64,000 nt of DNA. Source: Actinomycetota bacterium. GTDB lineage: Bacteria; Actinomycetota; Thermoleophilia; Solirubrobacterales; 70-9. Numbering within the stretch: position 1 is the stretch's first letter; each line of letters opens with the position of its first letter. The stretch spans positions 1-64,000 of the forward strand of contig VAYN01000014.1 of assembly GCA_005885405.1 (NCBI GenBank), read 5' to 3'. A program made the translations under genes and the position numbers. The notes beneath the pieces were generated by a model. That model was not told the origin of the DNA. It saw nothing but the letters and a program-made list of their open reading frames with translations, and searched no databases. Below, piece after piece: positions 34,391-38,541 of the stretch.

Positions 34391-34510
34391 GCCACATCTA
34401 GAGGGGTGGAGGGACTGGCCCATTGAAGCCCCGGCAACCATCGCGACCGCAAGGTCGAGACAGGTGCCAAATCCAGCAGGTCTCCTGAAGATCGGGACCT
34501 GAAAGATGTG
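34391..34510 (+). promoter_or_regulatory. SAM-I (S-box) riboswitch aptamer
   Basis: The arms CCACATCT (34391-34398) and AGATGTGG (34503-34510) form an 8-bp P1 helix. Between them are the conserved core blocks GAGGGACTGGCCC, GCCCCGGCAACC, the P3 hairpin CGACC-GCAA-GGTCG, GGTGCCAAATCCAGCA and the final GAAAGAT. These match the SAM-I consensus in order and spacing. The expression platform follows directly: TGTGGGG (34506-34512) can pair with CCCCACA (34533-34539), which breaks the terminator described next. SAM binding would keep P1 closed and turn the operon off. Confidence 0.93.
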
Positions 34511-34527
34511 GGGGATGTCCGATCCGG

Positions 34528-34554
34528 ACCTCGCCCCACAAATGGCGAGGTTTT
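34528..34554 (+). terminator. Riboswitch-controlled intrinsic terminator
   Basis: CCTCGCC (34528-34534) and GGCGAGG (34543-34549) form a 7-bp stem with an 8-base loop, followed by TTTTT (34550-34554). The 5' arm and loop overlap the antiterminator partner CCCCACA, so the two structures exclude each other. It stands 24 bases before the start codon of the PLP enzyme. Confidence 0.9.
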
Positions 34555-34578
34555 TACGTAAGTGGAAACGAGGATCGG

Positions 34579-35811
34579 ATGTCAGTAGAGAGCTTGAAGT
34601 GCAAGGAGTGCGGAACCAGCTACGAGCTGGACGCAAGCTACGTGTGCGAAAACTGCTTCGGACCGCTGGAGGTCGCCTACGACTTCAGCGGGCTCGACGC
34701 CGCCGAGGTGAAGCGGCGGATCCAGGCTGGGTCGCAGGGGATCTGGCGCTACCGCGACTTCCTCCCCTTCGAGGGGAGGGCGAGCGACCCGCTGGAGCCC
34801 GGCTTCACGCCGCTGCTGAAGGCCGATCGCCTGGCCGAGCGGCTCGGGGTCGGCGCCGAGATCTGGATCAAGAACGACGCCGCCAACCCGACCCACTCCT
34901 TCAAGGACCGGGTCGTCGCCGTCGCGGTGGCGAAAGCGAAGGAGCTCGGCTTCGAGACCGTCGCCTGCGCTTCGACCGGCAACCTCGCCAATGCCGTCGC
35001 CGCCCATGCCGCCGCAGCAGGGCTTGACTCATACGTCTTCGTCCCCGCCAACCTCGAGGAGCAGAAGCTGCTCGCTACCGGTGTCTACGGGACCAATCTG
35101 GTCGGCGTCCGCGGCAACTACGACGACGTCAACCGCCTCTGCACCCAGCTCGCCGAGACGCACCCGTGGGCCTTCGTCAACGTCAACCTGCGGCCCTACT
35201 ACGCCGAGGGCTCGAAGACGCTCGCCTACGAGACCGTCGAGCAGCTCGGCTGGAAGCTGCCCGACCGGGTGGTCAGCCCGATCGCCTCGGGTTCGCTCTT
35301 CACCAAGCTCGGGCGCGGCTTCCAGGAGTGGCTGGACATCGGCCTCGTCGAGGGCGTCCAGCCGGTCTTTAACGGCGCCCAGGCGGAGGGATGCAGCCCG
35401 GTCGCGACGGCGTTTGCCGAAGGCTGGGAAGTCTGCAAGCCACAGCGGCCGGAGACGATCGCCAAAAGCCTCGCGATCGGCGATCCCGCCGACGGGCCCT
35501 ACGCGGTCGAGCAGGCGCGTCGCACCGGCGGCGGCGTCGACTCGGTCACCGACCAGGAGATCCGCGAGGGGATCAAGCTGCTGGCGGAGACGACCGGGAT
35601 CTTCACCGAGACCGCCGGCGGGGTCACCGTCGGCGTCCTCCGCAAGCTGGCCGAACGCGGCGAGCTCGCCGATGGCGAGCGCGTGGTCGTCTACATCACC
35701 GGCGAGGGCCTGAAGACGCTGGACGCGACCCGCGATACGTTCCAGATGCACGAGATCGACCCCGCCCTCGAGAGCTTCGAGGCCGAGTTCCCGCAGGAGG
35801 TAGCCGTCTAG
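34579..35811 (+). CDS. thrC: Threonine-synthase-family PLP enzyme under SAM-riboswitch control
   Basis: A 410-residue fold-type II PLP enzyme. An N-terminal zinc ribbon has two CxxC pairs (Cys 8/11 and 23/26). The PLP Lys is in HSFKDR (about residue 109), ASTGNLANAVAAHAAAAGL is the substrate and phosphate-binding loop, and ITGEGLKTLDA is the C-terminal threonine-synthase signature. The family makes threonine from O-phosphohomoserine. Repression by SAM and an immediately adjacent CysO-type sulfur carrier (0-base gap) suggest methionine metabolism instead. A reaction of O-phosphohomoserine with carrier-bound sulfide to give homocysteine is a possible alternative, by analogy with CysM and CysO. 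This is inference; ordinary threonine synthase remains possible. Confidence 0.85.
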   Translation: MSVESLKCKECGTSYELDASYVCENCFGPLEVAYDFSGLDAAEVKRRIQAGSQGIWRYRDFLPFEGRASDPLEPGFTPLLKADRLAERLGVGAEIWIKNDAANPTHSFKDRVVAVAVAKAKELGFETVACASTGNLANAVAAHAAAAGLDSYVFVPANLEEQKLLATGVYGTNLVGVRGNYDDVNRLCTQLAETHPWAFVNVNLRPYYAEGSKTLAYETVEQLGWKLPDRVVSPIASGSLFTKLGRGFQEWLDIGLVEGVQPVFNGAQAEGCSPVATAFAEGWEVCKPQRPETIAKSLAIGDPADGPYAVEQARRTGGGVDSVTDQEIREGIKLLAETTGIFTETAGGVTVGVLRKLAERGELADGERVVVYITGEGLKTLDATRDTFQMHEIDPALESFEAEFPQEVAV

Positions 35812-36084
35812 ATGTCAGTCACCGTGAAGATCCCGACCCAGCTGCGCGCCGCGACCGGCGGCGAGGCAGCGCTCGAGGTGGAGGGCAACACCGTCGGCGA
35901 GGTGCTCGACGCCGTCTTCGACGCCCACAACGGCCTCAAGGACAGGATCACCCAAGACGGCGACCTGCGCCGCTTCGTCAACGTCTACGTCAGCGGCGAG
36001 GACATCCGCTTCCAACAGGGATTGGAGACGTCCATAAACGACGGCGACGAGGTAACCATCCTGCCGGCGGTGGCGGGCGGCTGA
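35812..36084 (+). CDS. CysO-like MoaD/ThiS-family sulfur carrier protein
   Basis: A 90-residue ubiquitin-fold protein ending ILPAVAGG. The free C-terminal Gly-Gly is what an E1-like enzyme adenylates and converts to a thiocarboxylate. By memory it resembles mycobacterial CysO over its whole length, with the shared pattern VTVxIPTxLR, RFVNxYV, D[IV]RFxxGL and the same last eight residues. CysO donates sulfide to the PLP enzyme CysM acting on O-phosphoserine. Here the partner is a threonine-synthase-like enzyme. The ATG follows the stop of that gene without a gap. No MoeB-like or Mec-like gene is in the window. Confidence 0.88.
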   Translation: MSVTVKIPTQLRAATGGEAALEVEGNTVGEVLDAVFDAHNGLKDRITQDGDLRRFVNVYVSGEDIRFQQGLETSINDGDEVTILPAVAGG

Positions 36085-36108
36085 GGCCCCTTCCGAACTT
36101 CGGGGGGC

Positions 36109-36114
36109 TATAAC
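36109..36114 (+). promoter_or_regulatory. Probable -10 box (TATAAC), leaderless, inside a G6/C6 hairpin
   Basis: TATAAC ends 7 bases before ATG 36122 with no Shine-Dalgarno sequence. It lies mostly in the loop of an inverted repeat formed by six G (36102-36107) and six C (36114-36119). Confidence 0.4.
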
Positions 36115-36121
36115 CCCCCAG

Positions 36122-37874: not shown

Positions 37875-38153
37875 ATGAGAATCACCAGCAAAGGGCAGGT
37901 AACGATTCCCAAGGGAATTCGGGACCAGTTTGGGCTTCTGCCCGGGACCGAGGTCGAGTTCGTCGCCGACGAGGGCCAAGTAAAGGTCCGCAAGTTGGAG
38001 GGTGACCGCGATCGCGGTAAGGAGATCGTCGATCACCTCCGCAGGGCGAGCGGCGGCGATATCCCCCTAAGCACCGAGGAGATCATGCGCCTGACCCGGG
38101 GAGAGGATTGGGGCACCGGCCACTTGGAAGAGGATGAAGGGCACTCTCGTTGA
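37875..38153 (+). CDS. AbrB/MazE/SpoVT-type antitoxin (VapB-like)
   Basis: A 92-residue protein. MRITSKGQVTIPKGIRDQFGLLPGTEVEFV is the swapped-hairpin AbrB DNA-binding domain. The C-terminal half (EEIMRLTRGEDWGTG) is the flexible part that would wrap the toxin. It overlaps the PIN-domain gene by 20 bases, as usual for VapBC operons. It should neutralise the toxin and repress its own promoter through the inverted repeat directly upstream. Confidence 0.85.
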   Translation: MRITSKGQVTIPKGIRDQFGLLPGTEVEFVADEGQVKVRKLEGDRDRGKEIVDHLRRASGGDIPLSTEEIMRLTRGEDWGTGHLEEDEGHSR

Positions 38154-38541
38154 CTCGAACGTCCTGATCGACGTTCTCTCCGGCGACCCGGTCTGGGCAG
38201 GGTGGTCGGAGGAGGCTCTGGCGCGGCTCGCCTCGGAGGGGCCGCTGTTCATCAACGGGGTCATCTACGCCGAGGTCTCGCAGCGGTACTCGCGCAAAGA
38301 GCTCCTCGACCACGAGCTGCCCGAAGAGGTGTTCATTCGCGAGCACCTACCGTGGTCGGCGGCCTTTCTCGCCGGAAAGGCGTATCTCGGCTATCGCCGC
38401 CGGGGCGGCCACCGGCGCTCCCCGCTACCGGACTTCTTCATCGGCGCCCATGCCGCGGTTGCGGATCTCCGCCTGCTCACCCGTGATGCGGCGCGTTACC
38501 GGACGTATTTCCCGGGCCTGGATCTCATCGCTCCGACCTGA
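38134..38541 (+). CDS. vapC: PIN-domain ribonuclease toxin (VapC-like)
   Basis: A 135-residue PIN domain. The first catalytic acid is in TLVDSNVLIDVL, a conserved Glu is in NGVIYAEVSQ, and the later acids are in LPDFFIGAHAAV and LLTRDAARYRTYFPGLDLIAP. The ending ARYRxYFPxLxLIxP is a very common VapC end. It would cleave tRNA or rRNA when free of the antitoxin. It starts inside the antitoxin gene. All acidic residues appear present, so the toxin looks intact. Confidence 0.87.
   Translation: MKGTLVDSNVLIDVLSGDPVWAGWSEEALARLASEGPLFINGVIYAEVSQRYSRKELLDHELPEEVFIREHLPWSAAFLAGKAYLGYRRRGGHRRSPLPDFFIGAHAAVADLRLLTRDAARYRTYFPGLDLIAPT

What the first reader, a model, noticed from the sequence alone, without database searches (positions are those of the whole stretch)
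34391..36084. SAM-I riboswitch controls a threonine-synthase-like enzyme paired with a CysO-type sulfur carrier: possible carrier-dependent homocysteine synthesis
Seen: a full SAM-I aptamer with 8-bp P1, a mutually exclusive antiterminator (TGTGGGG/CCCCACA) and terminator, then a fold-type II PLP enzyme with zinc ribbon, then with zero gap a 90-residue ubiquitin-fold protein ending in Gly-Gly and close to CysO. Known: SAM-I riboswitches almost always shut off methionine/SAM genes; CysO thiocarboxylate feeds CysM acting on O-phosphoserine; threonine synthase acts on O-phosphohomoserine. Inference: the pair may convert O-phosphohomoserine plus carrier-bound sulfide to homocysteine, a route parallel to CysM/CysO. 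Alternatively SAM may simply tune flux at the threonine/methionine branch point.
Basis: partly seen in the sequence, partly recalled or inferred. Interest (0 to 1): 0.85.

Follow-up and report, generated by a model that had tools for sequence, protein, structure and literature searches.

The report
SAM-riboswitch MetM/MetO methionine-precursor operon
A soil-type actinobacterium has a SAM-sensing RNA switch in front of two genes that very probably make homocysteine, the precursor of methionine, from the threonine intermediate O-phosphohomoserine with sulfur held on a ubiquitin-like carrier; this route was published in 2024 as MetM/MetO, so this is a well-supported new member and not a new system.

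Summary
The genome has a separate hom-thrC-thrB operon and a separate CysM/CysO/MoeZ/JAB cluster. It has no MetB/C/Y/Z-family protein, no MetX and no HcyBio homocysteine route. In the order (Solirubrobacterales), 200 of 232 genomes carry the enzyme and 203 of 232 the riboswitch, 42-95 bp apart in all 113 pairs compared; 81 genomes with the enzyme, including single-contig ones, lack any MetB/C/Y/Z protein. Elsewhere in the phylum the gene is often SAM-I-regulated and once carries a T-box whose specifier reads as Met. However, the pathway is already known: MetM and MetO of Streptomyces albulus (Hasebe et al. 2024, Appl Environ Microbiol 90:e01247-24), also under a SAM riboswitch, seen here through PMC12172450 because the paper itself is not held. 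Verdict: an ordinary but clean member of a known, recent system. Interest is moderate to low. Enzyme activity cannot be tested here.

The parts
34391..34512 (+). SAM-I riboswitch aptamer (S box); P1 34392-34399 / 34504-34511
   Evidence: RF00162, 83.8 bits, model 1-108; P1 located
34507..34540 (+). antiterminator: TGTGGGG 34507-34513 with CCCCACA 34534-34540, overlapping both P1 3' strand and terminator 5' arm
   Evidence: GTGGGG/CCCCAC pairing present in 17 of 17 sequences
34529..34555 (+). intrinsic terminator: CCTCGCC / GGCGAGG stem, 8-nt loop, U5 tail
   Evidence: stem of at least 7 bp in 17 of 17 sequences with compensatory changes; not reported by the simple scan
34579..35811 (+). metM-like gene: 410-aa PLP fold-type II, zinc-ribbon threonine-synthase-like enzyme (predicted homocysteine synthase)
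   Evidence: PALP 242 bits; TIGR00260 283 bits; 56-58% identical to the presumed Streptomyces MetM
35812..36084 (+). metO-like gene: 90-aa ubiquitin-fold sulfur-carrier protein ending in Gly-Gly
   Evidence: ThiS 61 bits; SAMP1/MoaD; CysO structures 3dwg, 4n6e; 55.6% identical to the carrier downstream of the presumed Streptomyces MetM

Best explanation
This is a metM-metO operon. MetO is activated at its C-terminal Gly-Gly by a ThiF/MoeZ-type enzyme and carries sulfur as a thiocarboxylate. MetM, a threonine-synthase relative, binds O-phosphohomoserine made by Hom and ThrB, eliminates the phosphate on PLP, and accepts sulfur from MetO-COSH in place of water, giving homocysteine instead of threonine. 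MetH methylates it to methionine. When SAM is plentiful the SAM-I aptamer stabilises P1, which takes the antiterminator strand, so the terminator forms and transcription stops before metM. Shown here: the RNA parts and their conservation, the gene families, the arrangement, and the absence of the usual routes. Known from the literature: the MetM/MetO reaction in Streptomyces. Inferred: catalysis, carrier activation and SAM response in this organism.
For: SAM-I only here in the genome, with a conserved terminator/antiterminator switch. A separate hom-thrC-thrB operon supplies O-phosphohomoserine and threonine. MetB/C/Y/Z, MetX and HcyBio are absent, while the homocysteine methyltransferase domain of MetH is present in own and 20 of 20 relatives. 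CysM/CysO/MoeZ/JAB are encoded elsewhere, so this carrier is a second one. Order-wide, MetM is in 200 of 232 genomes, SAM-I in 203 of 232, 113 of 113 compared pairs are on the same strand 42-95 bp apart, and 81 genomes have MetM without any PF01053 protein. All 30 sampled riboswitch loci lead into MetM, and 28 also show the carrier (the other two end within MetM). Phylum-wide, 31 of 40 MetM loci carry SAM-I, and one carries a T-box with specifier read as AUG and T-box base U, fitting tRNA-Met. A ThiS-type carrier follows MetM in 78 of 80 named loci, and in Nitrospira-type, Chloroflexi and some other loci MoeZ, CysM or JAB genes lie around the pair. MetM of S. albulus is reported as an O-phosphohomoserine-using homocysteine synthase beside carrier gene metO under a SAM riboswitch (PMC12172450).
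Against: No enzyme activity can be tested here. A relative in Microcystis showed threonine synthase and threonine deaminase activity in vitro (PMC12172450), so family membership does not fix the reaction. The genome is a 93%-complete assembly. Its metH reads in two overlapping frames.
Confidence: 0.88

Rival explanations
1. An ordinary threonine synthase whose expression SAM tunes at the threonine/methionine branch point, with the carrier gene incidental.
For: Best named family is threonine synthase. A Microcystis relative makes threonine in vitro (PMC12172450).
Against: A canonical ThrC lies in hom-thrC-thrB. The carrier is adjacent in 78 of 80 named loci. One homologue has a Met-type T-box. 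Without this enzyme no homocysteine route was found. The ThrC motif VNSVNPHRIEGQKT is replaced by a conserved VNVNLRPYYAEGSKT-type motif.
Confidence: 0.06
2. A second cysteine synthase (O-phosphoserine plus carrier-bound sulfur), a paralogue of the CysM/CysO route.
For: The carrier is as close to CysO (52-56%) as to the presumed Streptomyces MetO (56%). Chloroflexi and Nitrospira-type loci have CysM nearby.
Against: A dedicated CysM/CysO/MoeZ/JAB cluster is present. The enzyme is ThrC-like, not CysM-like. SAM-I and Met T-box control are signs of methionine genes.
Confidence: 0.03
3. A bifunctional enzyme that makes both threonine and homocysteine depending on carrier supply (overlaps with the best explanation).
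For: Threonine synthase activity seen in a cyanobacterial relative (PMC12172450).
Against: A separate ThrC exists, so there is no need for it; no direct evidence.
Confidence: 0.1

Closest known systems
MetM/MetO of Streptomyces albulus (Hasebe, Adachi, Maruyama, Hamano 2024, Appl Environ Microbiol 90:e01247-24; read through PMC12172450)
   Same: ThrC-like enzyme with a neighbouring sulfur-carrier gene, SAM riboswitch upstream, O-phosphohomoserine to homocysteine (inferred here); presumed Streptomyces copies are 56-58% identical
   Different: Another class of Actinomycetota (Thermoleophilia); sequence of the characterised protein itself not compared; activity untested
CysM/CysO/Mec+ of Mycobacterium tuberculosis
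   Same: Fold-type II PLP enzyme using a Gly-Gly carrier thiocarboxylate; carrier 52% identical to CysO
   Different: Enzyme is ThrC-like, substrate predicted to be O-phosphohomoserine; the genome has a separate CysM/CysO set
HcyS-dependent MetY of Wolinella succinogenes (known to me from the literature, not looked up)
   Same: Carrier-bound sulfur used for homocysteine
   Different: Uses a PF01053 sulfhydrylase and O-acetylhomoserine; PF01053 is absent here
Threonine synthase ThrC
   Same: Fold, PLP lysine motif SFKDR, about 39% identity to the genome's own ThrC
   Different: Zinc ribbon, changed pocket-region motif, carrier gene, SAM-I control

Membership tests
MetM/MetO homocysteine synthase system | ThrC-like fold-type II PLP enzyme orthologous to MetM | tested here: inconclusive
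   S. albulus MetM not held; 56-58% identity to genomes presumed to be Streptomyces; that group is 52-57% identical to a Microcystis homologue where the paper reports 51.6% between S. albulus MetM and a Microcystis ThrC
MetM/MetO homocysteine synthase system | metO-type carrier with C-terminal Gly-Gly next to metM | tested here: met
   35812-36084, no gap; conserved in the order and in 78 of 80 named loci
MetM/MetO homocysteine synthase system | SAM riboswitch upstream (as reported for S. albulus) | tested here: met
   also upstream of the presumed Streptomyces copies
MetM/MetO homocysteine synthase system | canonical homocysteine genes missing, separate threonine synthase present | tested here: met
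MetM/MetO homocysteine synthase system | converts O-phosphohomoserine plus thiocarboxylated carrier to homocysteine | not testable with these tools
   needs an enzyme assay
SAM-I riboswitch (RF00162) | covariance model match above gathering score | tested here: met
   83.8 bits against 44.4
SAM-I riboswitch (RF00162) | SAM binding and transcription attenuation | not testable with these tools
   switching elements present and conserved
Threonine synthase (ThrC) as the cell's threonine enzyme | only or main ThrC in the genome | tested here: not met
   canonical ThrC in hom-thrC-thrB
CysM/CysO cysteine synthase pair | CysM-type enzyme with the carrier | tested here: not met
   cysKM model only 41 bits against cut-off 344; own CysM/CysO on C23

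The most novel reading that the evidence does not exclude
Across Solirubrobacterales, MetM/MetO is the ancestral and in many species the only route to homocysteine, so methionine branches from threonine at O-phosphohomoserine instead of homoserine, under SAM-I control (or a Met T-box in an outlying lineage), while classical transsulfuration and sulfhydrylation were lost or never present.
Probability: 0.7. Interest if true: 0.4.

Novelty: new member of a known kind. Interest (0 to 1): 0.33.

Why it matters
Family-model annotation calls this gene threonine synthase, and with no classical homocysteine genes these bacteria would be scored as methionine auxotrophs. The locus shows that much of an order very probably makes methionine through a carrier-dependent branch from the threonine pathway. 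It also gives a large comparative set (SAM-I, T-box, two carrier systems side by side) for testing how MetM tells MetO from CysO.

Tried and rejected
Papers on threonine synthase with ThiS/MoaD and on CysO with homocysteine gave nothing useful. The Hasebe 2024 paper is not held, and the only paper held that cites it is PMC12172450. The carrier sequence alone cannot tell MetO from CysO: identities are 50-56% to both. The plasmid collection gave only a Nonomuraea record. The simple terminator scan missed the terminator. A structure prediction was not run, because the fold is clear from sequence and the tool gives no interface. HcyBio (DUF39) was considered as the missing homocysteine route and rejected: 0 of 31 genomes. 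MetA (homoserine succinyltransferase) was not searched; without a PF01053 partner it would not give homocysteine.

Full report
What is there. A SAM-I aptamer lies at 34391-34512 (83.8 bits) and is the only one in the genome. Its P1 3' strand can instead pair TGTGGGG with CCCCACA (34507-34513 with 34534-34540), which overlaps the 5' arm and loop of a terminator at 34529-34555. In 17 of 17 sequences of the genus and family (own included) the antiterminator pairing can form (at least 6 Watson-Crick pairs) and a terminator stem of at least 7 bp can form, with the stem changing on both sides (CCTCGCC/GGCGAGG, CCTTCGCC/GGCGAAGG, CCTTCACC/GGTGAAGG) and a T-rich tail. The generic scan did not report it. 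The switch is therefore supported by comparison, not by that scan.

The genes. The enzyme at 34579-35811 is a PLP fold-type II protein of the threonine synthase group with an N-terminal zinc ribbon. The next codon after its stop starts a 90-aa ThiS-family carrier ending in Gly-Gly (35812-36084). Compared with the genome's own ThrC, the enzyme replaces the VNSVNPHRIEGQKT motif by VNVNLRPYYAEGSKT, much of which is nearly invariant among its relatives; an effect on substrate choice is inferred only.

The rest of the genome. Six PALP-family proteins exist: a CysK-like protein, CysM, TrpB, a canonical ThrC in hom-thrC-thrB (contig C16), this enzyme, and a third zinc-ribbon ThrC-like protein on C4 (about 40-43% identical to this one). 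CysM sits in a cluster with a JAB-domain protease, a CysO-like carrier ending GG-ACAA, and MoeZ (contig C23); these names are read from the translations and, for the carrier and MoeZ, from family searches. No true PF01053 enzyme (MetB, MetC, MetY, MetZ) is found in own or the 11 congeners. MetX is absent in own; in the 9 of 61 genomes that have it the genome also has a PF01053 protein, at adjoining coordinates where both were listed. HcyBio is absent in 31 of 31. The homocysteine methyltransferase domain of MetH is present in 21 of 21, although in own the gene reads in two overlapping frames.

The order. The named scan places the relatives in Solirubrobacterales. SAM-I is in 203 of 232 genomes of the order, the enzyme in 200 of 232 (109 of 112 of high quality), PF01053 in 142 of 232. 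By handle, 119 have both enzyme and PF01053, 81 the enzyme only, 23 PF01053 only, 9 neither. In 113 of 113 compared genomes the riboswitch lies 42-95 bp before the enzyme on the same strand; these are pairs that I transcribed from the two truncated lists. All 30 sampled riboswitch loci lead into the enzyme and 28 also show the carrier, the other two being cut off. The single-contig assemblies G014, G020 and G022 have SAM-I and MetM but no PF01053, MetX or HcyBio.

Beyond the order. Homologues occur in 139 of 397 genomes sampled in the phylum. Of 40 inspected, 31 have SAM-I upstream. One (L118) has a T-box of 102.9 bits whose specifier I read as AUG (GAA-C-AUG-C) and whose T-box variable base is U, fitting a tRNA with discriminator A such as tRNA-Met; this reading uses the usual T-box spacing known to me. 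In the named collection a carrier follows in 78 of 80 loci. Cyanobacteria dominate the rest of that list; the five cyanobacterial loci among the 15 named loci tested had no SAM-I, whereas two Chloroflexi, one Acidimicrobiales and one Verrucomicrobia-labelled locus did. In Nitrospira-type and other loci CysM, MoeZ and JAB genes lie around the pair.

What is known. PMC12172450 states that Hasebe et al. (2024, Appl Environ Microbiol 90:e01247-24) identified MetM, a homocysteine synthase that converts O-phosphohomoserine, in Streptomyces, mentions metO of S. albulus as a sulfur-carrier family gene, and says that metM there has an upstream SAM riboswitch. That paper is not held; I recall from its abstract that MetO thiocarboxylate is the sulfur donor, and that is my own knowledge. 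The same source reports threonine synthase and deaminase activity for a Microcystis homologue, so the family may not be uniform in function.

Verdict. The most likely account is a metM-metO operon under SAM-I attenuation that supplies homocysteine. Shown: RNA elements, gene families, arrangement, phyletic pattern, absence of other routes within a 93% complete genome and across single-contig relatives. Inferred: catalysis, carrier activation, SAM response. New member of a known kind.

Noticed in passing
G000 contig C4:77236-78147 (locus L006; L059:9108-10424): Third ThrC-like protein with a zinc ribbon, about 40% identical to the window enzyme, standing alone beside an alpha/beta hydrolase and a leucyl-tRNA-synthetase-like gene; function unknown.
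   Followed up: partly
L118:693-991: A T-box leader whose specifier reads as AUG precedes a MetM homologue where others have a SAM-I riboswitch.
   Followed up: partly
G000 contig C13:16762-20347 (L216): metH reads as two overlapping frames (476 and 765 aa): frameshift in the assembly or a split gene; in most relatives it is one open frame of about 1200 aa.
   Followed up: partly
L060:10761-11045: The genome's CysO-like carrier ends GG-ACAA, so it would need trimming, perhaps by the JAB-like protease encoded at L060:4380-4778.
   Followed up: no
window 37875-38541: AbrB-like protein followed by a PIN-domain-like protein, overlapping genes, looks like a toxin-antitoxin pair (by eye from the translations).
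   Followed up: no
window 36101-36118: GGGGGG-CTATAA-CCCCCC inverted repeat between metO and the downstream nucleotidyltransferase-like gene, without a T-run.
   Followed up: no
G012, G014, G031, G039, G047 and others in the family: Some relatives carry two or three SAM-I matches; the genes under the extra copies were not identified.
   Followed up: no
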